A DNA stretch of 40,674 nt from an uncultured Alphaproteobacteria bacterium. Lineage in GTDB: Bacteria > Pseudomonadota > Alphaproteobacteria > SP197. The notes beneath the pieces were generated by a model, which searched no databases, had not been told where the DNA came from, and saw only the letters and a program-made list of their open reading frames with translations. Of this stretch, positions 4,971 through 39,578 are shown in pieces; within the stretch, counting starts at the first letter, position 1, and each line of letters begins with the position of its first letter. The stretch lies in the NCBI GenBank assembly GCA_938048755.1, contig CALIUG010000067.1:1-40674 (forward strand), given 5' to 3'. A program made the position numbers and the translations under genes.

Positions 4971-5205
4971 CACACAGAGGCAGAGAGAGTTCGGCGCAAG
5001 CTGTGAGAATGGATTGTGCACGCGGAGCCGCGGAGGACGCGGAGTGGTTCGGCGCAGCTTTCGAAATGCTTGCGCTGAACTCTCAATACTTCTGCCGCGC
5101 ATGCGCGGCGACCAACGAGCAGTTCCCGCGTTTGGCACTACGCCCATGACGTCTGACTCCGATACCACCCGCTAAGACTCCGCGTCCTCCGCGGCTCCGC
5201 GTGCA
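4971..5205. repeat. A/B palindromic element, copy 2
   Basis: The B-type arm CACACAGAGGCAGAGA is at 4971-4986 and the A arm (GCACGCGGAGCCGCGG onward) at 5018-5044. The central perfect hairpin GCCGCGC-AT-GCGCGGC is at 5094-5109. The A' arm at 5178-5205 is an exact inverted copy of the A arm. B lies outside A here, unlike copies 4 and 6. The element fills the gap between leuA and the convergent GxxExxY gene and ends 6 bases from that gene's stop codon. Confidence 0.85.
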
Positions 5206-5211
5206 TTTTTC

Positions 5212-5640
5212 CTAACCTTGCTGATTAACACGCAGATGCGTCGTCTCACCCGGCGACAGGTTGTTCACGATACGCCGCAAACCTTCCTTCATGGTCGGTG
5301 CACCAAAGTTGAGAAGCAGGCCGACGGGCAAACCCATCAGACGTAGATAGGTCAGGACCTGCTTGGCGTAGACGGGATGGAAGCTGTCGGTTGATTTGAT
5401 CTCAACAACCACGCGATCCTGAACCAGAAGGTCAATGCGGAAGGCTTCTGCAAAGTGCAGTCCGTCGTAGTCGAAGGATGGCGCGTGCTGGCGGATTACT
5501 CCCAGGCCCCGCCGCTCGAGATCGCGGGCAAGAATCGTTTCGTAGACTGATTCCAGAAGCCCGGGGCCCAACGCACCATGCAGTTTCATGGCTGCATCCA
5601 CGACCTCACCGGTCACATCGTCAAGCGTTCGATCTTGCAT
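5212..5640 (-). CDS. GxxExxY protein (PD-(D/E)XK nuclease-like)
   Basis: This is a 142-residue protein from ATG 5640, which has GGAG 8 bases upstream. GPGLLESVYE contains the family-defining G-x-x-E-x-x-Y (G27, E30, Y33). Residues FRID (D70) and VVEIK (E80, K82) fit the PD-(D/E)XK nuclease pattern, followed by YAKQVLTYLRL (Q94) and LLLNFGAPTMKEG. The family is widespread and lacks an established function; nuclease activity is inferred from the fold. Arm sequence of the A repeat lies on both sides in the same orientation: a full arm at 5178-5205 and a short piece at 5647-5657 that also supplies the Shine-Dalgarno. This suggests the gene is linked to the repeat family. Confidence 0.85.
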   Translation of the reverse strand: MQDRTLDDVTGEVVDAAMKLHGALGPGLLESVYETILARDLERRGLGVIRQHAPSFDYDGLHFAEAFRIDLLVQDRVVVEIKSTDSFHPVYAKQVLTYLRLMGLPVGLLLNFGAPTMKEGLRRIVNNLSPGETTHLRVNQQG

Positions 5641-5646
5641 CACTTG

Positions 5647-5657
5647 TCTCCGCGTGA
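5647..5657 (-). repeat. A-arm fragment upstream of the GxxExxY gene
   Basis: TCTCCGCGTGA on the plus strand reads TCACGCGGAGA on the minus strand, identical to the first bases of the A arm in copies 3 and 7. It contains the GGAG that serves as ribosome binding site for the GxxExxY gene. Eleven bases is short, so chance cannot be excluded. Confidence 0.4.
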
Positions 5658-5669
5658 GTCCTTCTGTCC

Positions 5670-6368
5670 TCACCGCATGCAGGTGTCGCTGGGTTGGCTG
5701 GTGTCCTGGGTGCCGGGCTGGAGGAAACTGGAGAACAGGGCATCGAAGAGGCAGGCGCTGACGCCGGCGAAGGAGGGGGTGGAGCCCGAGCTGGCGACGG
5801 TGCCTTCGTAGGCCGGGTAGAGATCGTCTCCGCTGGAGCGATCGAGGTCGAACATGCGCAGGGTGAAGTGACGGTCGAAGATGGTCTCGGTCACGGTGTG
5901 GTACCCGGTGACGCCATGGACCGGGGGGATGTATTCGGTGGAATGATAGGGCTCGTAGGTTCCCGTGGCCGAGTTGTAGATCAGATCCGTGGTGGTGATG
6001 GTCTGGCCTGGAACCAGGGTTCCGTATTCCTCCACGAGATAGGACTCATCGTGTGCGCCGATGCGGTAGTCGAAGTTCACGAGATAGTCGGCCTGGTCCT
6101 GTGAGTCGACGGCACGCAGGCCCTGCGCGACAAGGTGGGCTTCGATCTCGCGCCGGTACTGGCTGTATTCCGCACTCTGCTTTTGGTGGGCAAGCGGTAT
6201 GACGATGAAGGCCTGGCCGGCGGGGTTGCCGGCAAAATCGGCAAAACGCGTCACGTGAGACGTGACCTGCGGCGGCCCCGGCGCGACGCAGGCGGCGACC
6301 GGCAGCAGGACCAGAACGAGCGCGCAAAGGCGCACGAGGCTGATCGGGGAAACTAACATCCTCTTCAT
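5670..6368 (-). CDS. DUF4136-like lipoprotein
   Basis: This is a 232-residue predicted lipoprotein. From ATG 6368 (GGGAG about 7 bases upstream), MKRMLVSPISLVRLCALVLV is a signal sequence and LPVAAC a lipobox, so the mature protein should start at that Cys. The body has FIVIPLAHQKQSAEYSQYRR and later DYLVNFDYRIG, in line with the DUF4136 pattern of small lipoproteins where a predicted short-lived or redox protein must be computed from a conserved YxF/Y region. Family function is unknown. An upstream in-frame start would add 31 residues before the signal peptide and is unlikely. The gene is divergent from the MFS gene at 6528. The 159-base gap between them has no recognised feature. Confidence 0.65.
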   Translation of the reverse strand: MKRMLVSPISLVRLCALVLVLLPVAACVAPGPPQVTSHVTRFADFAGNPAGQAFIVIPLAHQKQSAEYSQYRREIEAHLVAQGLRAVDSQDQADYLVNFDYRIGAHDESYLVEEYGTLVPGQTITTTDLIYNSATGTYEPYHSTEYIPPVHGVTGYHTVTETIFDRHFTLRMFDLDRSSGDDLYPAYEGTVASSGSTPSFAGVSACLFDALFSSFLQPGTQDTSQPSDTCMR

Positions 6369-6527
6369 AGCGAACTCCCTGCCCCCAGCGATTTCCCCCT
6401 GCACCTGCAGGCTAGGCAAGAAAGAACATAACAGCAACACATGAATCGCCGGGCGCGGCACCGCTTTGTGATTGCAAGCAGCGCGATTGTGGTGCTGTGG
6501 TGACGGCTACACCCGCGCGATGGCGCT

Positions 6528-7715
6528 ATGGCAGATCCGCTCGACCTTTCACGGCCCTGGTTCCTGCGCCCCGGCGCAGCATCCTTCGGCATGATGTTTG
6601 CCACCGGCGCCTTCGGGCGCGCGGTGCTGCTGAGCGTGGTTCCGCTGGAGGCCTATCTGGTGCTGGGGAGCGCCCGCAACGTCTCGATCATGTTCATGAT
6701 CGTGGCTGCGGCGAACCTGCTGCTGTCGTTCGGCATTCCCGCGCTGATCGGACGGTTCCGGCGGCGCAGGGTCTATGTCGGCTGCATCATCCTTTGCGCC
6801 ATGGCACCGGTATTCCTGGCCACGGGCACCATGGCCGGCCTGCCGCTGGGCGCACTGTGCCGGGAGTTCGGCGGCACGGCGCTGTTCATCGCGCAGAACC
6901 TCTACATGATGGACCACATCGCCAAACGCGATTTCGTCAAGGCAGAACCCACGCGCCTGTTCTTTCAGGCGCTGGCATGGGGCATCGGTCCCTATGTCGG
7001 CGTACTGCTGTTTGCCCGGGTCGATCCCTGGGCGGCCTATGGCCTGGCGGCCTGTGCCTCGCTCGCCGAGCTGTTCTACTTCCGCGCCATACGCATCAGC
7101 GACATGAGCCTGCTGGCCACGCGCGCGGCCAAGCCGAAGAACCCATTGCGCTTCATCCGCCGGTTCTTCATCCAGCCGCGCCTGCGCCTAGCCTATACGA
7201 TTGCCGTTGCGCGCTCGACCTGGTGGTCGGTGCTGAACGTCTATGGCCCGATCTACATGGTCAAATCAGGGGCGGGCGAGGAAGCCGGCGGCCTGATCGT
7301 GGGGGCCTGCAACATGCTGCTGCTGATCACACCGGGGATCGGCTGGCTGGCGCGGCGCACGGGCGTGCGCCGGGTGGTGATCGGCGCCTTCGTCTTTTCC
7401 GGCCTCGCGACCTCGACCGTGGCACTGGCCTATCCCGATCCGTGGGCAGGGTTCTGGCTTTTCCTGCTGGCCGGTCTGGGCGTGGTGGCGCTGGATGCCG
7501 TGGGCACGGTGCCGTTTCTGCGTGCGGTGCGGGTCAGCGAACGCGACGAGATGACCATGGTCTTCGTGACCTATGGCCAGGCCGCGCAACTGGGCCCGAT
7601 GATGCTGTTTTCCGTCCTGCTTTCGTTTGTCGATCTGCCGGTCGTCTTTGTCGTGACCGCGATCGTGCTGGTCGCCGCAGCCTGGACCAGCCGCTGGATT
7701 CCCCGCGGAATGTAG
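6528..7715 (+). CDS. MFS transporter, first of a tandem pair
   Basis: This is a 395-residue membrane protein with about 12 hydrophobic segments and a short basic loop RFRRRR (about residues 76-81) in place of a classic motif A. It is clearly paralogous to the next gene: both contain NLYxMDxxAK, then AWGxGPxxGxLLF and PWxAYG at the same positions. Substrate is unknown. ATG 6528 (MADPLDLSRPW) is chosen because upstream in-frame sequence is not membrane-protein-like; the ribosome site is weak. The pair probably arose by local duplication. Confidence 0.8.
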   Translation: MADPLDLSRPWFLRPGAASFGMMFATGAFGRAVLLSVVPLEAYLVLGSARNVSIMFMIVAAANLLLSFGIPALIGRFRRRRVYVGCIILCAMAPVFLATGTMAGLPLGALCREFGGTALFIAQNLYMMDHIAKRDFVKAEPTRLFFQALAWGIGPYVGVLLFARVDPWAAYGLAACASLAELFYFRAIRISDMSLLATRAAKPKNPLRFIRRFFIQPRLRLAYTIAVARSTWWSVLNVYGPIYMVKSGAGEEAGGLIVGACNMLLLITPGIGWLARRTGVRRVVIGAFVFSGLATSTVALAYPDPWAGFWLFLLAGLGVVALDAVGTVPFLRAVRVSERDEMTMVFVTYGQAAQLGPMMLFSVLLSFVDLPVVFVVTAIVLVAAAWTSRWIPRGM

Positions 7716-7739
7716 GTTGCGGCGGTTTTTCTGTTTGTT

Positions 7740-7786
7740 CCCTCAGGCGCCGGGCGTTCGCTCGGCGCCTGAGGCTAAAAGACAAA
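7740..7786. repeat. Type E hairpin element, copy 1
   Basis: CCTCAGGCGCCG (7741-7752) and CGGCGCCTGAGG (7763-7774) form a perfect 12-bp stem. The inner GCG-TT-CGC extends pairing almost to the centre with one G-T. It is followed by CTAAAAGACAA, which recurs after the second copy at 9088. It has no T-tract on the plus strand. Confidence 0.7.
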
Positions 7787-7875
7787 GCGGAGCGAACACG
7801 CAGCGGAATTCTCATTGCCCTGAGGCGGGCACAGTGGTCTGGTGGCCTGGTCACGCGTAAGGTTCGTCCGCCGCC

Positions 7876-9072
7876 ATGCTGGTTCGCCTGCCTCTCAATG
7901 TCCGCCTGCTGGAAGCGCCGGGAACGGTGTCGTTCACGGTGCTTTCGACCGTCGACTGCATGTCGCGCGCGATGCTGATGGCGATCATTCCCCTGCAGGC
8001 CTATGCCACGCTGGGCAACGCGCGCGATCTTTCGATCCTCTATTTTGTCATCGCCTGGGGCGCGTTTGCCGGGCGATTCATTATCCCGAAGATGATCAGC
8101 AAGTTCCGCCGAAGGCGCATGTACAGCGCCGGCCTGCTGATGCTGGCGTTTTCGCCCCTCATGCTGGGGCTCGACACCCTGCCGACCCTGGCGGCGGGCA
8201 TGTTCCTGCGCTCCTTCGGGGCAGCGTGTGTGAACATCACGCTCAACCTCTACATCATGGATTATGTCGCCAAGCAGGAACTGACCCGGATGGAGCCGTT
8301 CAAGTATGCCTTTTCCGGCATCGCCTGGGGCGGCGGCCCGTTGATCGGCATCCTGCTGTTCGAGCATGCGGGTCCCTGGGTCGCCTATGGCATCGCCACG
8401 GGGATCAGCCTGCTGGCCCTGGCATTCTTCTGGTACATGCGCATCAAGGACGACCCCGTTGTCGCCAAGATGACCGCAGCCTCGCCCAAGCCGTTCAGCG
8501 TGCTTTCCTATCTGCCGCGCTTCTTCAAACAGCCGCGCCTGGTGCTGGCCTGGTGCCTGGGTCTGGGGCGCGAGACGTTCTGGGGCGCGCTGATCGTCTA
8601 TGGTCCCGTGCTGATCGTGGCCAAGGGTGGATCCCAGGAACTGGGCGGCATTCTGGTTTCAGCCGCCAACGGCATGATGTTCGCGGCCCTGCTGTTCGGC
8701 TGGATCGGGCGCAAGCACGGCATCCGCCGGGTTCTGATCGGCGGCTTCGCGGCGGCCGGACTGGCGACCCTGGCTGTCGCCTTTGCGCCCGACAACATCA
8801 CCTTTGTGATCGCCCTGCTGCTGCTCGCCTCGATCGGCATCACGGCCTGTGATTCCTGTGCCAACGTCACCTTCATGCGCGCGGTGAAGAAACGCGAGCA
8901 CCCGGAAATGACCATGGTCTATTCGACCTATTCGGACGCCTCCAGCATCCTGCCCGCAGCGGTCTATTCGGGCCTGCTCAGCGTCTTCCCGCTGGTTTCG
9001 GTCTTCCTTTCAACTGGTGCGGCCATGTTCGGCTTTGCCTGGATCGCCCGGAAAGTGCCCAGGAGCATGTAA
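7876..9072 (+). CDS. MFS transporter, second of a tandem pair
   Basis: This is a 398-residue membrane protein paralogous to the preceding MFS gene, with NLYIMDYVAKQEL and IAWGGGPLIGILLF aligning to the partner, and loop KFRRRRMYS near residue 77. About 12 transmembrane segments are expected; substrate unknown. The start ATG 7876 has AAGG about 12 bases upstream, so the start is moderately supported. The gene sits between two copies of the type E hairpin repeat (7740 and 9088), consistent with the repeat having travelled with the duplicated unit. Confidence 0.8.
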   Translation: MLVRLPLNVRLLEAPGTVSFTVLSTVDCMSRAMLMAIIPLQAYATLGNARDLSILYFVIAWGAFAGRFIIPKMISKFRRRRMYSAGLLMLAFSPLMLGLDTLPTLAAGMFLRSFGAACVNITLNLYIMDYVAKQELTRMEPFKYAFSGIAWGGGPLIGILLFEHAGPWVAYGIATGISLLALAFFWYMRIKDDPVVAKMTAASPKPFSVLSYLPRFFKQPRLVLAWCLGLGRETFWGALIVYGPVLIVAKGGSQELGGILVSAANGMMFAALLFGWIGRKHGIRRVLIGGFAAAGLATLAVAFAPDNITFVIALLLLASIGITACDSCANVTFMRAVKKREHPEMTMVYSTYSDASSILPAAVYSGLLSVFPLVSVFLSTGAAMFGFAWIARKVPRSM

Positions 9073-9087
9073 CAGGGATTCGTTGTT

Positions 9088-9124
9088 TAGCCTCAGACGC
9101 CGGCGACTGAGGCTAAAAGACAAT
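9088..9124. repeat. Type E hairpin element, copy 2
   Basis: TAGCCTCAG (9088-9096) and CTGAGGCTA (9107-9115) form a 9-bp stem around the self-complementary GCCGGC. It is followed by AAAGACAA, so CTGAGGCTAAAAGACAA is shared exactly with copy 1. It lies directly after the second MFS gene. A half copy with the 17 bases CCCTCAGGCGCCGGGCG of copy 1 is at 25661-25677. Confidence 0.65.
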
Positions 9125-9193
9125 CGCAGCACACGCCTGTTGCAGGCAAAAGAGCCTTTCCAAGTCCGGTTCGGGCCGCTATGTCGTGGCCCC

Positions 9194-10537
9194 ATGACAG
9201 AACAGAAAAAACCTCTCGATCTGGCGGGCGATCTGGTTGATCGCGCGCTCAAGGCCGGTGCCGACAGTGCCGATGCCGTGGCCTTTTCCGACACCTCGCT
9301 TTCGGTGAACTGGCGCATGGGTGCGCTGGAGGAACTGGAACGCTCTGAATCGACTGATCTGGGCCTGCGGGTCTTCGTGGGCCAGCGCATGGCGATTGTC
9401 TCGACCACCGATCCTTCCGACAGCACGCTGGACGAACTGGTCAATCGCGCCGTGGCGATGGCCAGGATCGCGCCCGAGGACAAGCTGGCAGGGCTGGCAG
9501 AAGCCGAACTGCTGGCCACCGAGTTCCCCGACCTCGACCTCGACGCCAACGACGAGCCCGCGCCCGAACGCCTGATAGCGATGGCCCAGGAAGCAGAGGA
9601 TGCGGCGCGCAGTGTCGAAGGCATCACCAACACCGAAGGCGCCTCGACCGGCTGGCACCGGATTACCTCGGCGCTTGCCGCCAGCAACGGGTTCCAGGGC
9701 AGCCATTCGGGCACGTCCTCGAGCATCTCAGCCGCAGTCATCGCGGGCGAGGGCCTGGGTATGGAACGCGACGGCGAATACCGCATGGCGCGCCACATGG
9801 AAGATCTGCCCTCGCCTGCCGAGATCGGCAAGGAAGCCGCCCGGCGCACCCTGCGCAAGCTGAACCCCAAGAAACTGCCGACCAAGGCGATGCCGATCGT
9901 GTTTGATGATCGCAATGCCAGAAGTCTTCTGGGCCATTTCATCGATGCGATCTCGGGGCCCGCGATCACACGCGGCACCAGCTTCCTCAAAGACAGCATG
10001 GGCAAGGACGTGTTCGGATCAGGCATCACCATTGTCGAGGACCCGCACCGCCAGCGCGGTTTGCGTTCGCGCCCGTTTGACGGTGAAGGCCTGGAGACCC
10101 GGGCCAACGAGCTGATCTCCAAGGGCGAACTGACCACCTGGCTGCTCGATTGCCGCTCGGCCCGTCAGCTGGAGCTCAAGCCCACGGGTCACGCCACACG
10201 CGGAACCTCGGGCTCACCCTCGCCTTCGCCCGCCAACCTGTGGCTGGAGCCCGGCACGGAATCGCCCGAAGCACTGATGGCCGACATTAAGGACGGGCTT
10301 TATGTGACCTATCTGATCGGTTTCGGCGTCAACGGTGTGACCGGTGATTACAGCCGCGGCGCAGCCGGGTTCCGTATCCAGGATGGCGAGATCACCGACA
10401 CGGTGAGCGAGATCACGATCGCAGGCAATCTGAAGGACATGTACGCCAACCTGATCCCCGCCAACGACTTGCAGTTCCTCTTCGGCACCGACAGCCCCAG
10501 CGTGCGCATCGACGGCATGACAGTCGCCGGGGTGTGA
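9194..10537 (+). CDS. pmbA: TldD/PmbA family protein, PmbA (TldE) subunit
   Basis: This is a 447-residue protein of the TldD/TldE protease system, which degrades unfolded peptides and matures some peptide natural products. In characterised TldD/TldE, TldE (PmbA) is the metal-free partner of the metallopeptidase TldD; no TldD gene is in the window. Visible family features are LGLRVFVGQRMAIVSTTD near the N-terminus, GTSFLKDSMGKDVFG in the middle, and RGTSGSPSPSPANLWLEPG followed by GVNGVTGDYSRGAAGF near the C-terminus. ATG 9194 is the first start in the conserved frame. Its stop overlaps the next start (GTGA), implying translational coupling to the cysQ-like gene. Confidence 0.9.
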   Translation: MTEQKKPLDLAGDLVDRALKAGADSADAVAFSDTSLSVNWRMGALEELERSESTDLGLRVFVGQRMAIVSTTDPSDSTLDELVNRAVAMARIAPEDKLAGLAEAELLATEFPDLDLDANDEPAPERLIAMAQEAEDAARSVEGITNTEGASTGWHRITSALAASNGFQGSHSGTSSSISAAVIAGEGLGMERDGEYRMARHMEDLPSPAEIGKEAARRTLRKLNPKKLPTKAMPIVFDDRNARSLLGHFIDAISGPAITRGTSFLKDSMGKDVFGSGITIVEDPHRQRGLRSRPFDGEGLETRANELISKGELTTWLLDCRSARQLELKPTGHATRGTSGSPSPSPANLWLEPGTESPEALMADIKDGLYVTYLIGFGVNGVTGDYSRGAAGFRIQDGEITDTVSEITIAGNLKDMYANLIPANDLQFLFGTDSPSVRIDGMTVAGV

Positions 10538-11322: not shown

Positions 11323-11417
11323 GTGCAGCCTTCACGCCCGCGATTCCCCATGATCGCAAAATGTTCTAAAACAGATACTTACCCTGAAGGCCGTCCGGCG
11401 GGCCTGCGGAAACCCTG

Positions 11418-13205: not shown

Positions 13206-13217
13206 CGGGGCCGCCCG

Positions 13218-16373: not shown

Positions 16374-16578
16374 CACGCGGAGACGCGGAGGACGCGGAGG
16401 ACGCGGAGTTTGAAGTGGCCGATGCGTCGTTGATGAACGCATCTTCTGCTCTCGGCGCAAGGTTTGGTGGTTTCACTGCCGCGCTTTGCGCGGCGAAATG
16501 CTTGAGACCTCACAACGTGCAACGAACGCAGGCATGCTCTGGGTTACGCAAACTCCGCGTCCTCCGCGTCTCCGCGTG
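16374..16578. repeat. A/A' palindromic element, copy 3
   Basis: The A arm at 16374-16408 is expanded by one extra GACGCGGAG unit. The central hairpin GCCGCGC-TTT-GCGCGGC is at 16478-16494 and the A' arm at 16553-16578. No B arms. The element occupies most of the 369-base gap between lpxL and the aminotransferase, both transcribed rightward. The rest of the gap (16579-16707) shows only the aminotransferase ribosome binding site. Confidence 0.85.
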
Positions 16579-18025: not shown

Positions 18026-18288
18026 CACGCGGAGCCGCGGAGGACGCGGAGAAACAAACCAAAAAAGAGTACGCACACAGAGGCACAGAGACACAGAGGC
18101 GTTCAGATCGGCTCTAGTTCATGACTGAGTGTCGCGGGGCAATTGGAATGACCTGAATGGATCGCTTTGCGATCCGCTTGCCAGCTTGCTGCACGATACG
18201 CAAACCACGCCCAACCCATCTCTGTGTCTCTGTGCCTCTGTGTGAAACCCTTTTTCTTGTTCCTCCGCGTCCTCCGCGGCTCCGCGTG
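18026..18288. repeat. A/B palindromic element, copy 4 (most complete)
   Basis: The nested arms run in order: A 18026-18051, B 18074-18099, centre, B' 18221-18244, A' 18263-18288. The centre is the perfect hairpin GGATCGC-TTT-GCGATCC (18159-18175). A and A' are exact inverted copies over 26 bases. The element lies between the convergent aminotransferase and xseA genes; the xseA stop is 29 bases beyond. The 316-base gap holds nothing else. Confidence 0.9.
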
Positions 18289-25562: not shown

Positions 25563-25566
25563 AGTC

Positions 25567-25649
25567 CGCAGGCCGACGCCTGATGGCATCAGGAGCACGA
25601 TCTGATGCGCATCGTTGCTGGAAAACACAGGGGTCGCAGGCTGGTCGCG
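25567..25649 (+). pseudogene. Partial duplicate of the rsmD start region
   Basis: These 83 bases match 25737-25819 with 10 differences. They include the ATG (25605) and the first 15 codons of rsmD (MRIVAGKHRGRRLVA). All three coding differences are synonymous third-base changes. The copy is followed by an 87-base insert beginning with a half type E repeat. The frame from ATG 25605 runs 56 codons and stops at TGA 25773-25775, overlapping the real rsmD ATG as TGATG. It could be translated and couple to rsmD. Confidence 0.7.
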
Positions 25650-25677: not shown

Positions 25678-25774
25678 CGCGCTCCACGCGCTTGGCTTAC
25701 GCCGCAGGGGCGGCGACGCACGGTCGTGCGCTTGGGCGCAGGCCGATGCCTGATCACATCAGAGGTACGACCTG

Positions 25775-26329
25775 ATGCGCATCGTCGCGGGGAAACACAG
25801 GGGTCGCAGGCTGGTCGCGCCCCAGGGTCACGATATCCGGCCGACCAGCGACCGGGTGCGTGAAGCGCTTTTCAACCTGCTGGCCCACAGCCTGGACTGG
25901 TCCGGGCTGGAGGAGGCCTGGGTTGCCGACATCTTCTGCGGCACCGGTGCCGTCGGCCTGGAGGCGCTGTCACGCGGCGCGGCCCATGCCACCCTGGTCG
26001 ACAACGGCCAGCCCGCCTTTGCCGCGACACGTCAGAACATCGCCACGCTGGGTGAGGAGCAACGCACAAGCTTCCTGCGCAACGACGCCACGAAGCCGAT
26101 GCCGCGCCCTGCCCGGCCCATCGACTTTGCCTATCTCGACCCGCCCTATCGCCTGGAGGTCACCGCCGAAGTGCTGACCAACCTGCTGGATTCAGGGTGG
26201 CTGGCTCCCGATGCGCTTTCCTGCGTCGAACTCCACCGCAAGGCGGCGTTCGAGGCACCAGACGGGTTTGCCGTGGAAGACGAGCGCATCTATGGCGACA
26301 CACGGCTGGTGTTCCTGAAGCTGACCTGA
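25775..26329 (+). CDS. rsmD: 16S rRNA (guanine966-N2)-methyltransferase
   Basis: This is a 184-residue SAM-dependent methyltransferase acting on 16S rRNA in the assembled small subunit. It has RPTSDRVREALFN near the N-terminus, DIFCGTGAVGLEALSRGA (from residue 52, SAM-binding) and the catalytic DPPY at residues 122-125. The start ATG 25775 is preceded by the duplicated 5' region at 25567. It is convergent with mutL, with two palindromic elements between. Confidence 0.93.
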   Translation: MRIVAGKHRGRRLVAPQGHDIRPTSDRVREALFNLLAHSLDWSGLEEAWVADIFCGTGAVGLEALSRGAAHATLVDNGQPAFAATRQNIATLGEEQRTSFLRNDATKPMPRPARPIDFAYLDPPYRLEVTAEVLTNLLDSGWLAPDALSCVELHRKAAFEAPDGFAVEDERIYGDTRLVFLKLT

Positions 26330-26340: not shown

Positions 26341-26545
26341 CACGCGGAGCCGCGGAGAACGCGGAGTCATGAGCGTGTTGGACGGTCGTTATCAAATGAT
26401 CGACCGGATCACGTGGCGACAGGGGGAAATGGCTGGCCGCGCACGCGCGGCGATTCAACATGAATGGCCGACCAACGCTGCAAGTGCGTTCGTCTTGGCC
26501 GCCAAGACTTGACTGAACCCTCCGCGTTCTCCGCGTCTCCGCGTG
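26341..26545. repeat. A/A' palindromic element, copy 5
   Basis: A arm 26341-26366 and A' arm 26520-26545. The central hairpin GCCGCGC-AC-GCGCGGC (26436-26451) is the same class as copies 2 and 3. The flanks add GATTGT on the left and AATCAATCC on the right, so the inverted repeat extends loosely beyond the arms. It starts 11 bases after the rsmD stop. Confidence 0.85.
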
Positions 26546-26634: not shown

Positions 26635-26849
26635 CACGCAGAGACGCAGAGGCGCAGAGAAACAAGGAAAAGAAGGAAGGCGATGCACACAGAGGCACAG
26701 AGCCACAGAAGCATTTCAATTGCGCCGAGGACGCGAAGGGAAAACCGTTCAGACCCAACGTGGATCTCGGAACGTCGTGAGATAAGCGACCTCTCCGTGT
26801 CTCTGTGCCTCTGTGTGATTACTTTCTTGTTTCTCTGCGTCTCTGCGTG
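26635..26849. repeat. A/B palindromic element, copy 6 (variant arms)
   Basis: The arms are diverged. A reads CACGCAGAGACGCAGAGG onward (26635-26659), B is 26686-26709, B' 26793-26817 and A' 26833-26849 (CTCTGCGTCTCTGCGTG). The arm uses CGCAGAG instead of CGCGGAG. No strong central hairpin is visible. The element ends six bases before the mutL stop codon. Copies 5 and 6 lie in tandem and fill the 526-base gap between the convergent rsmD and mutL genes; 26546-26634 holds nothing else. Confidence 0.8.
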
Positions 26850-31398: not shown

Positions 31399-31419
31399 AC
31401 GTTGGTGGTGAGCATGGGA

Positions 31420-32781: not shown

Positions 32782-32871
32782 CCGGTCAGAGGAACAGCCC
32801 GCATCCGAGCTAGAGGCCGATTGCGGCAAAGACAAGGCGCATGACGGGAGTGTGATCGACCGGGTCGTGTA

Positions 32872-33417: not shown

Positions 33418-33420
33418 GGC

Positions 33421-34020
33421 CTAGAACAGATCCTCAAGCAGGGCTTTTTCTTCTTCGACGACAATAACGCCCTCGAATTCGCCGGGGTTGGCAGGAAGAC
33501 CCAGAGCAGCGTTGTTCTGAAGCCGTTCGCGCTCCTTGTTGACGTCGATCAGCACCTCTGTGGGATCTCCCCGATCGACGACCGGATTGATGTCCTCGAT
33601 CCAGGTGGAGTCATTGAGGATGTAGAGGTGTTCGTCGTCCACGATGCCGCGGATGTTGGGGTCGATGACCAGCTGTTCGCTTTGGGCGAGCGCGTTGGTG
33701 GTTGCCTGGGCCGTGAGCAGTTCTTCGCCCACGGAGGGGTTGCCTTGCGGCAGAGCCGATCCGAACAGCGCGACCTGTGCCTGTTCGGAGGGCTGGAGTT
33801 CCTGGGGCCGCGCAAGACCAGGCTGGGGTTCGGGCAGATCTTCAAGATCAGGCGGCAGGCGCAGGGGCGCACGGGTCACGACGTTGAACTCGTCCGGCGC
33901 AGTACGGATCGAACCCAGGGACTCACGAATGTTGGTGCAGCCGCCCACGACCAGGGCAGACGCAAGCAGCGTGAGGGCGACCATCATGTGGCCGGACCGT
34001 GGAAACGAACCGTTGCTCAT
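33421..34020 (-). CDS. DUF3035 family lipoprotein
   Basis: This is a 199-residue lipoprotein. After a signal sequence, ALVVGGC gives the lipidated Cys. TAPDEFNVVTRAPLRLPPDL is the hallmark of DUF3035, an alphaproteobacterial family often next to lspA, of unknown role. The rest is Gln/Glu-rich with a long IDPNIRGIVDDE region. ATG 34020 overlaps the lspA stop by three bases (ATGA), so it is coupled to lspA, fitting because signal peptidase II processes lipoproteins. Confidence 0.82.
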   Translation of the reverse strand: MSNGSFPRSGHMMVALTLLASALVVGGCTNIRESLGSIRTAPDEFNVVTRAPLRLPPDLEDLPEPQPGLARPQELQPSEQAQVALFGSALPQGNPSVGEELLTAQATTNALAQSEQLVIDPNIRGIVDDEHLYILNDSTWIEDINPVVDRGDPTEVLIDVNKERERLQNNAALGLPANPGEFEGVIVVEEEKALLEDLF

Positions 34021-34514
34021 GTCTCTACCTTAGAGTCGGATTTGGGCGTCAACAAGGCATCGACGACCAGCAGAATGACGCCCACGGTGATGGCGGAATC
34101 CGCGATGTTGAAGGCTGGCCAGCTGTAACCGGCAACATGAACATCAAAGAAATCGGCAACCGCTCCATAAACAATGCGATCCACGGCATTGCCGACCGCT
34201 CCGCCCACGACAAGGCCCAGGGCCACAACAGCCATGGTCTTGGTCTGTTTGGTCATCCAGATGACCAGGCCGATGGAAACGACAAAGGCAAAAATCGTAA
34301 GCAGCCAGCGGGTGAGTTCCTCACCGCTGCCAAAGAGGCCAAAACTGACACCGCGATTCCACACCATCACGATGTTGAAGAACCCGGTGATGCGGATCGG
34401 CTCGAAGTTCATCCCGTTGAGGAACTCGATCAGGACCATCTTGGAAACCTGGTCGAACGCAAAGACAACGAGTGCGATGCCAAGGCCGATGCATAGTTTG
34501 CGTTTGGAGGTCAG
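34017..34514 (-). CDS. lspA: Lipoprotein signal peptidase II
   Basis: LspA cleaves the signal peptides of prolipoproteins in the inner membrane. Four hydrophobic helices and both catalytic aspartates are present: D112 in GNAVDRIVYG and D139 in AFNIADSAI. The start is unusual. No ATG, GTG or TTG occurs in frame at the expected place; CTG 34514, overlapping the ileS stop, has GGAGG exactly 7 bases upstream and gives a normal 165-residue protein. The nearest in-frame alternative, GTG 34562, adds 16 Arg-rich residues antiparallel to no known LspA feature. Numbering here uses the CTG start. Confidence 0.88.
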   Translation of the reverse strand: MTSKRKLCIGLGIALVVFAFDQVSKMVLIEFLNGMNFEPIRITGFFNIVMVWNRGVSFGLFGSGEELTRWLLTIFAFVVSIGLVIWMTKQTKTMAVVALGLVVGGAVGNAVDRIVYGAVADFFDVHVAGYSWPAFNIADSAITVGVILLVVDALLTPKSDSKVET

Positions 34515-37360
34515 CTTCCGACCTCCGTCACATCGGCCACTTCGGCGACCGCGCCGGCACACCGCAGACAGAGATCTTCCATGGTGGGATCGCTGCCGAC
34601 CTCTTCGAGCACCATCCAGCATCGTTCACAGCGCGCGCCGTCCGAGAGTTTCACGACAACGCTGATGCCCGGCACATCGTCCAGCCGGAAGGCATCGGCG
34701 GGACCTTCGCCCTCCTGCAGGGTTGCGGTCGAGGCGATAGCGATTTCGGCGAGATCAAGCCCGTCGAGTGCAGCAATATCGGCTGCCGTGGCATGGACCA
34801 CCGGATGGGCCTGCAGGCTGGCGCCGATGCGCTTCTCGCGCCGCTCGACTTCCAGGGCGCCGGTGACGACACGGCGCAGGCGACGGATGGTCTGCCACTT
34901 TGCCGCCAGGGCATCGTCGCGCCAGGCATCGGGGATGTCCGGAAAAGTGCGGCGGTGCACGCTCTCGGTCTCGCCGGGGAAACGCTCCAGCCAGGCTTCC
35001 TCTGCGGTGAAACACAGGATGGGTGCGAGCCATGCCGTGAGGCAGGAGAACAGCGTGTCGAGCACGGTGCGCGCAGCACGGCGGCGCGGCGAATTGGCAG
35101 CATCGCAGTAGAGCGCATCCTTGCGGATATCGAAGTAGAAGGCCGAAAGCTCCGTCGCACAGAAGTTGTGGAGCGCGACGAACAGACCATGGAAATCAAA
35201 ATCGTCGCAGGCCTTGCGAATCAAACGGTCGTGATGCCAAAGGCGGTGCAGGACCCAGCGTTCCAGTTCCGGCATGTCCTCGGGCGCGACCCGTTCCTCG
35301 TCGCTGAAGCCGGCGAGGTTGCCCAGCAGGTAACGCAGGGTGTTGCGCAGACGTCGGTAGCTGTCGGCCTGGTATTTGAGGATCTCATCAGAGATGCGCA
35401 GGTCTTCGGAATAGTCCGCGCTGACGACCCAGATACGCAGGATGTCGGCGCCGTATTGTTCGATGACCTTCTGAGGCGCAACGACATTGCCCAGGGACTT
35501 CGACATCTTGCGCCCCTCGCCGTCCATGACAAAGCCGTGCGTCAGCACCGCGTCATAGGGCGCGCGGCCACGGGTGCCGCAGCTTTCCAGCAGCGAGGAA
35601 TGGAACCAGCCGCGATGCTGGTCCGACCCTTCGAGATAAAGCGAAGCGGGCCAGGCGAGATCCTCGCGCTGTTCAAGGCAGAAGGCGTGGGTCGAGCCGG
35701 AATCGAACCAGACATCGAGAATGTCGGTGACCTGCTCGTAGTCTTCCGCCCGGCGGTCGTTACCCAGGAACCGCTGGGGATCGCTGGCGAACCAGGCATC
35801 GGCTCCCTCTTCTTCCACGGCCTCTGCAATGCGGTCGATCACGGTCTGATCGCGCAGCACCTTGCCTGTTTCCTTATTCACGAAGACGGCAATGGGCACG
35901 CCCCAGGCGCGCTGGCGGCTGAGAACCCAGTCGGGCCGGGTTTCAATCATGCCGCGGATGCGCGTTTCGCCCGAGGACGGGACCCAGCGCGTGTCGTCGA
36001 TGGCTTTCAGTGCCGTGTCGCGTAGCCCACCGGATTCCATCGACACGAACCACTGGCTGGTGTTGCGGAAGATGAGCGGGGCTTTCGAGCGCCACGAATG
36101 GGGATAGCTGTGGCGCAGCGAACCCTTGGCGATAAGGCAGCCCGATTCGATCAGCGCCTTGATCAGACGGCCGTTGGCATCACCGTCCTTGCCGTCGTCG
36201 GTCAGCACACGCGCGCCGGCAAAGAGCGGTACATGGTCGAAGTAGCTACCGTCCTCACCCACGGTATGGGGGACCTCGATGCCGTGGTCCATGCCCAGAA
36301 CCCAGTCCTCGGCTCCGTGGCCGGGCGCGATATGGACAAAGCCGGTGCCCGCTTCGGTGGTGACATGATCGCCGGGCAGCAGGGGCACATCGAAATCGTA
36401 ACCCTGGCCGCGGAAGGGGTGGGCGCAGATCGTCCCGGCGAAGTCATCGCCCTTGAACTGCTTCAGCTTGGTATGGCCGGTGATGTCGGCACGCGCCATG
36501 GCTTCGCCCATCAGCTCGGCGACAAAAACCAGCTTCTGGCCGACGGCCACGCGGGCCTTTTCACCGGTCTCGGTGACTTCGATCAGGCGGTAGTCGAAGT
36601 CGCGGCCATAGGCGATGGCGCGGTTGCCGGGGATGGTCCAGGGCGTGGTCGTCCAGATGACCACGCCGGCCCCCTCCAGCTCGGGCTGCGAGGCCGTGAC
36701 GACGGGAAATGCGATGTCGATGGTGGGCGACTTGTGCTCGTGATACTCAACCTCGGCCTCGGCCAGCGCGGTCTTTTCGACACACGACCACATGACCGGC
36801 TTGGAGCCGCGGTAGAGCTCGCCCGACATGACAAACTTGCCCAGTTCGCGCACGATCTGCGCCTCGGCGGCATAGGCCATGGTGAGGTAAGGGTTTTCCC
36901 AGTCGCCGATCACGCCCAGGCGCTTGAACTCCTCGCGCTGCACGTTGATCCAGTGGTCGGCGAACTCGCGGCATTCGCGGCGGAACTCCACGATATCGAC
37001 CGCATCCTTGTCCTTGCCTGCGGCGCGGTACTGCTCTTCGATCTTCCATTCGATGGGCAGGCCGTGACAGTCCCAGCCCGGCACATAGTTGGCATCCTTG
37101 CCCAGCATCTGCTGGGAACGGTTGATGACGTCTTTGAGGATCTTGTTGAGCGCATGGCCGATATGGAGATGGCCGTTCGCATAGGGCGGGCCGTCATGGA
37201 GGATGAACTTCTCGCGCCCTTTGGAATCGGCGCGCAGGGTGTTGTAGAGGTCGTTTTTCTCCCAGCGTTCCAGCACGTCGGGCTCACGCTTGGGCAGGCC
37301 CGCACGCATGGGAAACTCGGTCTGGGGCAGAAACAGGGTCGACTTGTAGTCGGCGGTCAT
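34511..37360 (-). CDS. ileS: Isoleucine-tRNA ligase
   Basis: This is a 949-residue class I synthetase charging tRNA-Ile. The ATP-binding HIGH is at 66-69 in GPPYANGHLHIGHAL and KMSKS at 618-622. The editing (CP1) domain includes WTTTPWTIPGNRAIAYG. The C-terminal zinc site contains CERCWMV and LCLRC. Length and layout fit the eubacterial type. ATG 37360 begins MTADYKSTLFLP. It is followed by lspA in overlapping frames. A hairpin with a T-tract lies about 46 bases upstream and might control it. Confidence 0.96.
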   Translation of the reverse strand: MTADYKSTLFLPQTEFPMRAGLPKREPDVLERWEKNDLYNTLRADSKGREKFILHDGPPYANGHLHIGHALNKILKDVINRSQQMLGKDANYVPGWDCHGLPIEWKIEEQYRAAGKDKDAVDIVEFRRECREFADHWINVQREEFKRLGVIGDWENPYLTMAYAAEAQIVRELGKFVMSGELYRGSKPVMWSCVEKTALAEAEVEYHEHKSPTIDIAFPVVTASQPELEGAGVVIWTTTPWTIPGNRAIAYGRDFDYRLIEVTETGEKARVAVGQKLVFVAELMGEAMARADITGHTKLKQFKGDDFAGTICAHPFRGQGYDFDVPLLPGDHVTTEAGTGFVHIAPGHGAEDWVLGMDHGIEVPHTVGEDGSYFDHVPLFAGARVLTDDGKDGDANGRLIKALIESGCLIAKGSLRHSYPHSWRSKAPLIFRNTSQWFVSMESGGLRDTALKAIDDTRWVPSSGETRIRGMIETRPDWVLSRQRAWGVPIAVFVNKETGKVLRDQTVIDRIAEAVEEEGADAWFASDPQRFLGNDRRAEDYEQVTDILDVWFDSGSTHAFCLEQREDLAWPASLYLEGSDQHRGWFHSSLLESCGTRGRAPYDAVLTHGFVMDGEGRKMSKSLGNVVAPQKVIEQYGADILRIWVVSADYSEDLRISDEILKYQADSYRRLRNTLRYLLGNLAGFSDEERVAPEDMPELERWVLHRLWHHDRLIRKACDDFDFHGLFVALHNFCATELSAFYFDIRKDALYCDAANSPRRRAARTVLDTLFSCLTAWLAPILCFTAEEAWLERFPGETESVHRRTFPDIPDAWRDDALAAKWQTIRRLRRVVTGALEVERREKRIGASLQAHPVVHATAADIAALDGLDLAEIAIASTATLQEGEGPADAFRLDDVPGISVVVKLSDGARCERCWMVLEEVGSDPTMEDLCLRCAGAVAEVADVTEVGS

Positions 37361-37405
37361 GTCACGAAATCCGATGGTCGTTGCGCAATCTGGATGGAAG
37401 TACGG

Positions 37406-37435
37406 AAAAGCCCGGCTCTCACCTAGAGAACCGGG
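37406..37435 (-). terminator. Terminator-like hairpin in the ileS leader
   Basis: Read on the minus strand, CCCGG-TT-CTCT-AGGTG-AGAG-CCGGG (37435-37411) is a GC-rich stem with a bulge, followed by CTTTTCC. It lies between any upstream promoter and the ileS start (46 bases away). It could terminate transcription from upstream or act as an attenuator; no leader peptide was identified with it. Confidence 0.4.
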
Positions 37436-37845
37436 TCCGTAATTCGCGGTATGGCCGCAAAGAAGCGCCTCTTCGACATGGCGCGGTGTTTAGCATCGGG
37501 GGCTGGGGGTGTCGAGGTGGGGCTTCAGGCGCACAATTTCGAGCACATTATAGAGCCACGGGCGCAGACAGCCGATGCTTTGTCAACGTCAACGATTGTT
37601 TGCAGTATTCGAGGGGTGCCTTCGGTGTAAAGCGTCGCATGACTACGATTCAGCTCGCTTCCGAAGTTTGGTCCGAAGAAGGAAATGTCCAAATTCCTTC
37701 AACGGCTTTTGAAGGCAAGGGTGATCAAGCTTAAAGTCACGATCACCCTAACCATCAAGTAGCTGTAAGGGGGAGGTTCTGGGACTCAATCTGGAGCCTC
37801 CCCCGCCGGGTACAAATATCGGCCCATTTGAGGGGGATCTCAACC
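37436..37845. other. Intergenic region with small hairpin and unassigned short frame
   Basis: A strong hairpin, GGGGGAGG (37769-37776) with CCTCCCCC (37797-37804), lies just before the HTH gene. A 31-codon frame (37639-37734, beginning MTTIQLASEV) has no recognised family or clear ribosome site. No other gene is supported here. The sequence from about 37540 is less GC-rich than the rest of the window. Confidence 0.4.
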
Positions 37846-38031
37846 ATGACGGCACAAGAATTTACCGACTGGCAGGCCCGCATGGGGTGAGGCCAGGTTC
37901 ACACGGCCCGCGAGTTAGATGTGGATCGAAAGTCTGTCTACAACTGGCGGAGCGGAAACAACGCAATCCCGAAGGTGGTTGAACTGGCCTGCCGCTATCT
38001 GGAGCATGTAGGAGCCTCCAACGAAGGCTAG
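37846..38031 (+). pseudogene. Small helix-turn-helix protein interrupted by a single TGA
   Basis: ATG 37846 reads MTAQEFTDWQARMG, then TGA 37888-37890, then GQVHTARELDVDRKSVYNWR and SGNNAIPKVVELACRYLE in the same frame to TAG 38029. This matches small Cro/YdaS-like HTH proteins, where the interrupted position is normally Trp in RMGWTQ, so TGG probably mutated to TGA. The full frame would be 60 residues. A Shine-Dalgarno-like GAGGGGG precedes the start by about 9 bases. Truncation would remove the DNA-binding helices. Convergent with the DddP-like gene. Confidence 0.7.
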
Positions 38032-38079
38032 ACTCGTTACGATTTGGCACCTTTCGGATGCCAACAACCCATCCACGCT

Positions 38080-39330
38080 TCAAACCTCTTCCCACGGAAA
38101 ACTGTCGAGCCGTTCCGGGCCATCAGCCGTGATCAGGACCTGGGTTTCGAGTTTGATGCTTTCGGTGCCTTCCTCGGCCATCAGGCTTTCGACGCACACG
38201 ACCATGCCTTCCTCGAACTCGCCGTCATAGGCGTTTTCCTCGTTGATGTGGTGGAGGTAGACGACGGGCCATTCGTCGGCCATGCCGACGCCGTGGAGGG
38301 CGATGCCGTAGGAGTAGGCCTGGCTGGCTTCGGGGATGCGCCAGGACTTGGCGTTGTATTCGGCAAAGCTCATGCCGGGGGCAAGTAACGCGGTGTTGTG
38401 GGTGACCTGGTCGAGGGCCTGGGCGTACATGCGTTTCTGGGTGTTGGTCATCGCCGTGTAGCCGCAGGTCCAGGAGCGTGAGAGATCGGCGCAATAGCCA
38501 TAGGGCCCGATGAGGTCGGTATCGAGCGAGATCATCTCGCCTTCGCGGCACACGGTGTCGTCGCACTCGTGATACCAGGGATTGGTGTTGGCGCCGCAGG
38601 CGAGCAGGCGCGTTTCCAGCCATTCGCCGCCCGAGCGGGCGTTTTCATAAGACATCTCCGCCCAGAGTTCCTGCTCGGTCCGACCGGGCAGCGAGTTCTC
38701 GTAGATGCGCGCCATGGCGGCTTCGCAGACACGGATGGTCCAGCGCATGAGCGTCATTTCGTCCGCGCTTTTGATGGCGCGCGCGCGTTCGGTGAGTTCC
38801 AGGCCGTCCAGAATATCGAAGCCGCGGTCCCTGAGGGCAAACGCACCGGCTGGTTCGCACTTGTCGATGGCGATGCGCGTGTTGCCGCCGCCATGGGTGC
38901 GAACGAGATCAGCGATTTCGTCGGCCCACTTCTTCAGAAACTCTTCCGCGCGGTCGCCTGTCACCATGTAGAGCCAGGGCGTGGCGATGCGCAGGTCGTC
39001 GACGGCATCGACCCCTTCCCACAACGGCAGCCCGGCGACGGTTTCGAACATGACCGAAGGGCCGTCGGCCAGCAGCAGGGCGTAGCGGACCGCGTTGTGG
39101 GCCGTCCAGACCTGCATGTTGGTGACGTCGAAGGCGTAGCGGATGTTGATGGGATCGTAGAGCAGCAGGGCAGCGCAATCATGCTCGGCCATCTTCTGGC
39201 GCAGGCGGCCCATGCGGTAGGCACGCGCGGCCTCGACGACGCTTGGCGCGATGGGACTTTTCAGCGGCCGGTCGGCCCCCTCCTGATTGAGAAAGGCTTC
39301 CTTGCGTGCGTCCTTGAAGACCTGAACCAT
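38080..39330 (-). CDS. DddP-like M24 family enzyme (candidate DMSP lyase)
   Basis: This is a 416-residue protein of the M24 (pita-bread) fold. Blocks LLYDPINIRYAFDVTNMQVW, GGEWLETRLLACGANTNPW, ISLDTDLIGPYGYCADLSRSW (split) and ALHGVGMADEWPVV match DddP, the iron-dependent DMSP lyase that releases dimethyl sulfide. Metal-ligand residues D270, D272, D282, H346 and E381 and the proposed catalytic D352 keep the same spacing as in characterised DddP; E395 is one residue closer. The family also contains dipeptidases, so lyase activity is inferred. ATG 39330 has GGAG about 9 bases upstream; ATG 39357 would add nine residues. It lies between ribF and ileS. Confidence 0.75.
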   Translation of the reverse strand: MVQVFKDARKEAFLNQEGADRPLKSPIAPSVVEAARAYRMGRLRQKMAEHDCAALLLYDPINIRYAFDVTNMQVWTAHNAVRYALLLADGPSVMFETVAGLPLWEGVDAVDDLRIATPWLYMVTGDRAEEFLKKWADEIADLVRTHGGGNTRIAIDKCEPAGAFALRDRGFDILDGLELTERARAIKSADEMTLMRWTIRVCEAAMARIYENSLPGRTEQELWAEMSYENARSGGEWLETRLLACGANTNPWYHECDDTVCREGEMISLDTDLIGPYGYCADLSRSWTCGYTAMTNTQKRMYAQALDQVTHNTALLAPGMSFAEYNAKSWRIPEASQAYSYGIALHGVGMADEWPVVYLHHINEENAYDGEFEEGMVVCVESLMAEEGTESIKLETQVLITADGPERLDSFPWEEV

Positions 39331-39413
39331 GGCACCTGCTCCCCGAGCGACGATCATGTTGCTGGGACCTTAACGGAAACGTCAGACAGTGCAGCAGTGA
39401 AAAAGAAGATGAT

Positions 39414-39578
39414 CACGCGGAGACGCGGAGGTCGCGGAGGGAGCCTGCGCAAGGTCGTAGAGCGTACGAACAATCTGTGTTCTGGAGAACGGGTTGGGAT
39501 CGCTTTGCGATCCCGATGCGATAGTCTCGAAGTCCGCAGCCCACTCTCAGGAACGCTGCACTCCGCGTTCTCCGCGTG
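39414..39578. repeat. A/A' palindromic element, copy 7
   Basis: A arm 39414-39439 (with GTCGCGGAG in its last unit) and shorter A' arm 39561-39578. The central hairpin GGGATCGC-TTT-GCGATCCC (39496-39514) is the same class as copy 4. It sits between the DddP-like gene start and the ribF end. The right arm is directly followed by a type C repeat. Confidence 0.82.

What the first reader, a model, noticed from the sequence alone, without database searches (positions are those of the whole stretch)
4971..39578. Family of long palindromic intergenic elements with A and B arms
Seen directly: six complete inverted-repeat elements (4971, 16374, 18026, 26341, 26635, 39414) plus a half element (55). Each has arms of about 26 bases built on repeated CGCGGAG units; some have nested second arms built on CACACAGAGG. 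Arm flanks often extend as GGATTGT on the left and CAATCC on the right. All lie between genes and fill the convergent gaps leuA/GxxExxY, aminotransferase/xseA and rsmD/mutL. Inference: a mobile or transcript-end structured repeat family, much longer than classical REP sequences.
Basis: partly seen in the sequence, partly recalled or inferred. Interest (0 to 1): 0.7.

Follow-up and report, generated by a model that had tools for sequence, protein, structure and literature searches.

The report
Nuclease cassette with gene-less palindromic satellites
The long palindromes between genes here belong to a widespread bacterial DNA family whose full-length members carry a small nuclease gene between the same kind of repeated arms, which looks like an undescribed kind of mobile element.

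Summary
The palindromes are real: inverted pairs of 26-nt arms (three CGCGGAG units); 32 arms in the host genome, control 0. The same arms occur in many phyla. New is their partner. Such arms flank, head to head, a gene for a small PD-(D/E)XK nuclease (PF13366/TIGR04256, "GxxExxY"): 45 of 77 genes examined have correctly oriented arms on both sides, against 0 of 2057 control windows. Arm motif follows nuclease clade at the minimum number of changes, though six genomes hold more than one class. In Sphingomonadaceae one fabD-fabG site is found empty, full, or with a lone arm, and arms plus gene pass between species as a cassette while the flanks do not. The two arms often change together. The window's PDDEXK_3 gene (5212-5673) adjoins the 5019-5203 palindrome, but lacks an intact flanking pair. 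I read the palindromes as gene-less relatives of this cassette. That the Cas4/lambda-exonuclease-like enzyme moves or rewrites them is inferred, not shown. My searches of an open-licence library found no account of it.

The parts
89..114 (-). CGCGGAG arm (right-hand type) of a half element at the contig end
   Evidence: contig C2 begins with a 108-of-111 match to this stretch
55..69 (-). CACAGAG-type arm remnant of the half element
4971..4989 (+). unpaired CACAGAG-type arm remnant
5019..5044 (+). left arm, CACGCGGAGCCGCGGAGGACGCGGAG
5178..5203 (-). right arm, exact reverse complement of 5019-5044; 8 nt from the GxxExxY gene
5212..5673 (-). GxxExxY / PDDEXK_3 nuclease gene (likely start at 5640, my choice), adjoining the 5019-5203 palindrome
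   Evidence: PF13366 E 7.6e-35; TIGR04256 E 7.4e-36
5642..5658 (-). single-unit arm remnant ACTTGTCTCCGCGTGAG at the upstream end of the GxxExxY gene
16374..16408 (+). left arm, four CGCGGAG units
16553..16578 (-). right arm, three units
18026..18051 (+). outer left arm (CGCGGAG)
18074..18098 (+). inner left arm (CACAGAG)
18220..18244 (-). inner right arm (CACAGAG)
18263..18288 (-). outer right arm (CGCGGAG)
26341..26366 (+). left arm, 11 nt after the rsmD stop codon
26520..26545 (-). right arm
26635..26659 (+). outer left arm (CGCAGAG)
26686..26709 (+). inner left arm (CACAGAG)
26793..26817 (-). inner right arm (CACGGAG/CACAGAG)
26833..26849 (-). outer right arm (CGCAGAG, two units), 6 nt from the mutL stop codon
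39414..39439 (+). left arm
39561..39578 (-). right arm, two units

Best explanation
The palindromes are gene-less satellites of a small mobile cassette. The full cassette is: inverted arm (2-3 tandem copies of an 8-10 nt unit; CRCNRAG in the clade of this window), then a roughly 125-residue GxxExxY nuclease with a predicted Cas4/lambda-exonuclease-like fold, then the inverted arm at the stop codon. Shown: the architecture, the link between arm motif and nuclease clade, presence/absence and horizontal exchange of the whole cassette at one site, and concerted change of the two arms at a number of sites. Inferred: the nuclease acts on DNA at its own class of arm. My preferred steps are that it resects or nicks at an arm, the inverted arms fold or anneal, one arm is copied from the other (or from another copy) during repair, and the same process occasionally inserts or replaces a cassette or a gene-less arm pair. 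Gene-less pairs persist as substrates supplied in trans.
For: (1) 45 of 77 GxxExxY genes have a '>' arm at the left and a '<' arm at the right within 150 nt; 0 of 2057 control windows in the same loci do; the opposite orientation on both sides occurs in 1 of 77. Of the 77, 48 come from the phylum draw, which did not depend on arms (28 of 48 positive), 28 from genomes picked mostly because they have arms (17 of 28), and one is the window's own (negative). In G570 the only two arms matched in the genome flank its gene. (2) Of the 32 genes without this, several have inverted arms of other unit types. Arm class needs 3 changes on the nuclease tree, the minimum possible (shuffled mean 18.7, 0 of 200 as low; 83 of 110 genes classed), and G246, G250, G267, G393, G418 and G432 each hold more than one class. 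(3) Of 118 arm-pair interiors, the 4 of 350-399 nt all hold an open GxxExxY frame. (4) At fabD-fabG: 8 empty sites (23-51 nt), 5 full cassettes, and a lone arm in G206, out of 32 loci looked at, 13 of which did not parse; cassette and flank trees conflict (AU p 0.0026, 4e-65, 2e-6 on flank data; 5e-8, 4e-54 on cassette data; groups were named after seeing the trees); gene identity is 0.83-0.93 within an arm type and 0.68-0.76 between types while flanks stay 0.82-0.96 (9 species). (5) Arms change together: spacer bases match in 22 of 57 pairs (shuffled mean 6.0, max 14), and G209 carries the same odd sequence in both arms across the gene (by eye). (6) Fold: best PDB matches are Cas4 SSO0001, LHK-Exo and a phage-related exonuclease, with lambda exonuclease at rank 8; E30, Y33, K82, Q94 invariant and D70, E80, Y98 nearly so in 50 rows.
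Against: The window's own gene has no intact flanking pair, only a palindrome on one side and a one-unit remnant on the other. None of 114 shorter interiors shows a gene remnant in a profile search. In the phylum draw 26 of 65 arm-positive genomes have no PF13366 match and 25 of 64 gene-positive genomes have no exact arm triplet; G010 and G014 of the window's family also have arms and no PF13366. Within family f77 arms and gene are not associated (26, 12, 19, 17; p 0.23). Arm change is not always matched: in the 15 usable comparisons, 31 changes are the same in both arms, 11 are in the left arm only and 17 in the right arm only. No target-site duplication and no recent jump to a new site was seen; most copies examined stay at orthologous sites, and allele exchange could be ordinary homologous recombination. 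Relatives of the window's enzyme are rare on plasmids (6 of 72,556 records), not found in 50,697 phage records (one-protein tblastn, so distant clades may be missed) and rare in viral contigs (4 loci). Some arm shells cross rather than nest (L120, L168, C194). The Foldseek matches are modest (TM 0.3-0.5 by query length for the best ones, none below E 0.001).
Confidence: 0.5

Rival explanations
1. The nuclease gene is a defence or toxin module whose expression is controlled by the arms as an RNA hairpin (the left arm's GGAG/GAAG could serve as ribosome-binding site and the right arm often carries the stop codon). Alleles are exchanged by homologous recombination under diversifying selection, and gene-less palindromes are orphaned regulatory RNA.
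For: In many loci the arms sit next to the start codon and at the stop codon (by eye); in four annotated plasmid records the gene lies co-directionally between two other genes, fabD and fabG in one; alleles behave as exchanged cassettes; weak PADLOC hits to an RT-associated PDDEXK and Cas4 (E 0.001-0.05).
Against: Gene-less pairs far outnumber gene-bearing ones in the sample (114 of 118 interiors) and lie in many unrelated intergenic sites; regulation alone does not explain arms of the same class spread over a genome, or empty and lone-arm sites.
Confidence: 0.2
2. The palindromes are passive. Inverted arms are kept alike by replication template switching and slippage, and GxxExxY merely tends to insert or survive inside them.
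For: Unit-number changes (2 to about 11 units) and the same odd sequence in both arms of G209 are what slippage and strand switching give.
Against: It does not explain why arm motif follows nuclease clade, also inside one genome, nor gene placement in 45 of 77 cases against 0 of 2057 windows, nor the spread of the same units across phyla.
Confidence: 0.15
3. They are REP/REPIN-type elements moved by a RAYT (IS200/IS605-like) transposase.
For: Inverted pairs with variable loops, intergenic, tens of copies per genome.
Against: Y1_Tnp (PF01797) was found in 0 of the 5 arm-bearing genomes of the family and in 1 of 16 genomes in all, an arm-less one; no GTAG tag seen in the arms.
Confidence: 0.03
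4. They are bidirectional transcription terminators or mRNA-end stabilisers without a mobile partner.
For: 4 of 6 window elements lie between convergent genes, and the elements fold strongly.
Against: Loops of mostly 50-200 nt; sequence-specific arms shared across phyla; one Sphingomonas element lies beyond what looks like a separate intrinsic terminator (by eye); arms enclose genes.
Confidence: 0.07

Closest known systems
REPIN / RAYT (Pseudomonas and others)
   Same: Short inverted repeats with variable loop, intergenic, tens of copies, paired with one dedicated gene
   Different: Arms are tandem 8-10 nt units with no GTAG tag seen; partner is a PD-(D/E)XK Cas4-like nuclease, not an HUH transposase; PF01797 not found in the 5 arm-bearing genomes of the family
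IS element / MITE pairs
   Same: Copy with one gene between terminal inverted repeats, gene-less miniature copies
   Different: No transposase of a known class seen inside, no target-site duplication found, interiors of gene-less copies differ from site to site (by eye), arms change together
Free-standing homing endonuclease genes
   Same: Small nuclease gene present, absent or replaced at one site against the tree of its flanks
   Different: Carries its own inverted arm repeats and has gene-less satellites elsewhere in the genome
GxxExxY protein family (TIGR04256, PF13366)
   Same: The nuclease is a member by curated model
   Different: Known as a protein family only; its flanking inverted repeats and satellites are not described in the papers I found
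Cas4 / lambda exonuclease (QxxxY PD-(D/E)XK)
   Same: Predicted fold and catalytic pattern
   Different: About 125 residues, no convincing PDB relative by sequence (best E 0.65), not in a CRISPR or phage setting in the loci seen

Membership tests
GxxExxY / PDDEXK_3 | match above curated cut-off | tested here: met
   PF13366 120.2 bits against cut-off 22; TIGR04256 123 bits against 35
GxxExxY / PDDEXK_3 | PD-(D/E)XK catalytic residues and GxxExxY motif | tested here: met
   G27, E30, Y33, K82, Q94 invariant in 50 rows; D70, E80, Y98 in at least 90%
REPIN / RAYT | cognate Y1/RAYT transposase in the genome | tested here: not met
   0 of 5 arm-bearing genomes of the family
REPIN / RAYT | GTAG or CGTC tag with short stem in each arm | tested here: not met
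   arms read CACGCGGAG..., no tag by inspection; tag definition from PMC3733652, abstract start and passages seen
MITE / IS | terminal inverted repeats shared by gene-bearing and gene-less copies | tested here: met
MITE / IS | target-site duplication | tested here: inconclusive
   sites without an element too diverged to read
MITE / IS | known transposase class | tested here: inconclusive
   only GxxExxY was found inside arm pairs, but interiors were searched only with the GxxExxY profile and other transposases were not sought beyond PF01797
Homing endonuclease gene | gene moves into the same site against the flank phylogeny | tested here: met
   AU tests; identity contrast; active homing not shown
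Homing endonuclease gene | cleaves the empty allele | not testable with these tools
   needs enzyme assay
Rfam RNA families | match at gathering score | tested here: not met
   0 in the window

The most novel reading that the evidence does not exclude
A pan-bacterial class of selfish DNA driven by a minimal Cas4/lambda-exonuclease-like nuclease. The enzyme recognises inverted arms of tandem 8-10 nt units, each nuclease clade with its own unit, spreads its cassette into fixed operon sites, and rewrites both arms of dispersed gene-less palindromes in trans so that they come to match, which would make many of the anonymous CTCTGTG/CTCCGCG/ATCTGTG-type intergenic repeats of bacterial genomes one system.
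Probability: 0.35. Interest if true: 0.95.

Novelty: categorically new. Interest (0 to 1): 0.85.

Why it matters
Repeats of this look are scattered through genomes of many phyla and I found no name for them in print, while GxxExxY proteins are annotated by motif. Joining the two gives each an explanation to test: a one-gene nuclease cassette with its recognition repeats and non-autonomous satellites. If the nuclease works on its arms, it would be a mobile or gene-converting system with no known transposase, and the clade-specific arm units would be a ready-made set of enzyme-site pairs.

Tried and rejected
RAYT/IS200 as mobiliser: PF01797 found in 1 of 16 family genomes, none of the 5 with arms. 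Rfam: no match in the window. Literature by arm sequence: none relevant. Copies with another gene between arms were not searched for systematically; none was noticed. Gene remnants in short interiors: none beyond the level of the reversed control. Exact insertion boundary or target-site duplication: not resolvable at rsmD/mutL, the G208 site or fabD-fabG. The idea that gene-less arms follow the type of the resident nuclease in Sphingomonas G061/G139/G148 fits some sites (L269/L292/L306, L271/L300, L278/L299/L313, L282/L304), but CGCGAAG and CGCGGAG arms coexist in all three genomes, so I keep it as a suggestion; 6 of 26 chosen comparisons had no three-unit pair in both species, and 5 of the other 20 (L270-L291, L270-L305, L283-L290, L283-L307, L301-L312) pair different shells and are not used. 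One search is not corrected for phylogeny; its handle lists were copied by hand, and its pattern is strict (it misses 9-nt periods, as in G500, whose gene does have arms). Three genomes with tandem-only pattern hits (G528, G569, G230) were dropped from the counts at three or more arms. G076 (control higher than the count) was judged false. In one search own-genome loci L032 and L038 were not used, and shuffles mix genomes, so composition adds to the difference. In one search, 27 of 110 genes were left out because their inverted repeat scored under 12 or had fewer than two units. L377 could not be parsed.
Full report
OBSERVATION. The window holds six complete inverted-arm elements and one half element, as listed under parts. 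The arm is CACGCGGAG-n-CGCGGAG-nn-CGCGGAG; some elements carry a second shell of CACAGAG or CGCAGAG arms. The own genome (4.16 Mb, 301 contigs) has 32 CGCGGAG arms with up to 3 mismatches, control 0, plus other-type arms (38 matches with 1 mismatch allowed, overlapping ones included, control 10). Most sit in inverted pairs with 100-400 nt between the arms. The six elements fold 4.0 to 13.2 s.d. below shuffles. ARAGORN and Rfam find nothing in the window.

GENE CONTEXT. By Pfam: leuA / PDDEXK_3 (convergent), lipid A acyltransferase / aminotransferase (tandem), aminotransferase / xseA (convergent), rsmD / mutL (convergent, two elements), M24 peptidase / ribF (tandem). The rsmD-mutL order was found in 8 other genomes of the family. 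The gap is 526 nt with two elements here and about 65-215 nt without arms in G005, G003, G001, G006 and G004; G014, G008 and G009 have 0.8-1 kb of other sequence there with at most two single units. So these two elements are lineage-specific. G002, another arm-bearing genome of the genus, gave no MutL match and could not be compared.

DISTRIBUTION. CGCGGAG triplets occur in 6 of 61 relatives (3 of 10 in the genus, the window's genome included in both), control 0. With a general unit CRCNRAG x3 at 8-nt period, 65 of 398 genomes of the phylum have a match, a few of them plain tandem runs, and 18 of 20 genomes behind named loci, one of them (G076) judged false. Occurrence is patchy within genera, though the pattern misses 9-nt periods.

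THE TWO ARMS EVOLVE TOGETHER. In 88 arm pairs (window, 12 of 14 own-genome loci, L104-L183), unit type agrees in 62 (shuffled mean 42.6, max 53), spacer bases are identical in 22 of 57 (mean 6.0, max 14), and sequence just outside and inside the arms is complementary within an element more than between elements (7.30 against 5.65, n 86; 6.21 against 4.92, n 75; 0 of 2000 permutations as high) (shuffles mix genomes, so composition contributes). At orthologous Sphingomonas sites, L269/L292, L277/L302, L278/L299 and L282/L304 have CGCGAAG arms in one species and CGCGGAG arms in the other: 4-6 of 23 positions change in each arm, and 4-6 of those changes are the same in both arms. Interior identity there is 0.77, 0.67, 0.43 (40 against 76 nt) and 0.69; at sites with little or no arm change it is 0.68-0.82 (L272/L298, L275/L289, L276/L309, L280/L303). 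So at three of the four switched sites the interior was not replaced. Over the 15 usable comparisons, 31 changes are the same in both arms, 11 in the left only, 17 in the right only; L272/L298, L280/L303, L276/L309 and L299/L313 have unmatched changes only. G209 shows one odd sequence in both arms across the gene (by eye). Unit numbers vary from 2 to about 11, which points to slippage.

THE PARTNER GENE. In L285/L297/L317 the arms enclose an orthologous GxxExxY (PDDEXK_3) gene with three arm types in three species. PF13366 is present in 64 of 398 genomes of the phylum. Arms and gene together 39, arms only 26, gene only 25, neither 308 (odds ratio 18, p 3e-20; not phylogenetically corrected). 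With at least three arms and outside family f77: 6, 4, 13, 301 (odds ratio 35, p 3e-6); within f77: 26, 12, 19, 17 (p 0.23). Position is the stronger evidence: 45 of 77 GxxExxY genes have correctly oriented arms at both sides within 150 nt, 0 of 2057 control windows do; in the 48 genes from the phylum draw the figure is 28. The 77 include about 14 orthologues from Sphingomonas and its kin, so they are not all independent. In many loci the left arm ends shortly before the start codon and the right arm carries the stop codon (by eye). Of the 32 genes lacking such arms, several have arms of other units: CACAGATnAA, ACGCGGATGA, CACGGAA, CACGAATGAA, CACGGAC..., AGGGATnA; others have none that I can see. 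Over 110 genes the best inverted repeat across the gene has median score 19.25, and 45 reach the 99% level (21.5) of 400 between-locus pairs, a conservative null because loci share units. On a tree of 83 nucleases the class of the unit (last base G 63, T 16, A 3, C 1) needs 3 changes, the minimum (shuffled mean 18.7, 0 of 200; near-copies help), and genomes G246, G250, G267, G393, G418 and G432 hold more than one class. Five named plasmid records: inward-facing arms flank the gene in Bacteroides finegoldii, weaker ones in Bernardetia and a single unit each side in Sphingomonas parapaucimobilis; in Gemmatirosa an inverted pair of CGCAGAG arms faces outward, the wrong way round; in a Fusobacteria plasmid nothing was found.

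MOBILITY. At fabD-fabG (names from the annotated record) in Sphingomonadaceae, 294 of 298 genomes matched the joined flanks. I looked at 32 loci, 14 of the 30 and the 18: 8 parsed as empty (23-51 nt between landmarks), 5 as full cassettes (484-514 nt), 2 loci of one genome (G206) as a lone arm, 4 with other inserts, and 13 did not parse. Among 13 species the cassette tree groups species by arm type against the flank tree, and in 9 of them gene identity follows arm type while flank identity does not (G148, with mixed CGCAGAG arms, stands apart at 0.69-0.73). At another site (trpD-trpC by recall, not tested) L326/L339/L332 have flanks 80-94% alike that do not align through the GxxExxY gene in that listing, which was cut at 78% identity. 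This is horizontal replacement of a cassette bounded by its arms. It does not by itself show self-mobility.

ENZYME. AlphaFold2 model of the window protein: mean pLDDT 91.8, pTM 0.84. Foldseek best PDB matches: SSO0001 (that it is a Cas4 is recalled; E 1.4e-3, probability 0.99), then LHK-Exo, a phage-related exonuclease, MGME1 and lambda exonuclease; none below E 0.001, and TM by query length about 0.3-0.5 for these. No convincing PDB relative by sequence (best E 0.65). Conserved D, E-x-K and QxxxY (the naming of these motifs is recalled).

MECHANISM. Shown: architecture, co-segregation of arm unit and nuclease clade, cassette exchange, empty and lone-arm sites, concerted arms at a number of sites. 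Inferred: the exonuclease-like enzyme acts at its arms, and repair by foldback or annealing copies one arm from the other and occasionally installs a cassette or a gene-less pair. I put the gene-less-relative reading at about 0.75 and enzyme action on the arms at about 0.45.

LITERATURE. Searches by arm sequence, by REP/REPIN terms, by GxxExxY and by PF13366/PDDEXK_3/TIGR04256 found no account of this pairing. Passages seen: PMC8934634 (a GxxExxY domain reported next to an RT where another tool found cas4), PMC12085832 (a viral gene table), PMC9756366 (PF13366 in Arctic algae), PMC3733652 (REP superfamilies). Search listing with abstract openings only: PMC3116915, PMC8049555. The library holds open-licence papers only.

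Noticed in passing
window 25567-25649 and 25737-25819: An 83-nt direct repeat (88% alike, 170 nt apart) around the start of rsmD, as if the gene's start region were duplicated.
   Followed up: no
interiors of window elements and L031-L041: Many gene-less interiors hold a short central hairpin of varying sequence (GGATCGCTTTGCGATCC, GAGCGGCCTTGCCGCTC, GCCGCGC..GCGCGGC) near the middle (by eye). Role unknown.
   Followed up: partly
L120, L168; G000 C194:21663-22118 (L037): Arm shells in crossed order (A M G ... M' G' A'; M A ... M' A'), so they cannot all pair at once.
   Followed up: partly
L304 (G139:C12:89991-90193): Right arm expanded to about 11 CGCGGAG units opposite about 5 on the left.
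   Followed up: no
L318 (G432:C48): GxxExxY frame runs through its right arm into a downstream protein, giving a 382-residue open frame; the downstream part looks like CobH (recalled, not tested).
   Followed up: no
window 1-115 and G000 C2:1-111: Contig C2 begins with a 108-of-111 match in reverse to the window start: either the neighbouring contig or a second copy.
   Followed up: partly
G010, G014, G440, G566, G374: Genomes with many arms but no PF13366 match: lost gene, missing contigs, or another enzyme.
   Followed up: no
L482-L485: Four viral contigs encode GxxExxY relatives; all four have inverted repeats of unit-like sequence across the gene (scores 16.5-26, gene limits set by hand).
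   Followed up: partly
L487 (Gemmatirosa kalamazoonensis plasmid): GxxExxY gene between arms that face outward instead of inward, 32-nt perfect inverted repeat.
   Followed up: no
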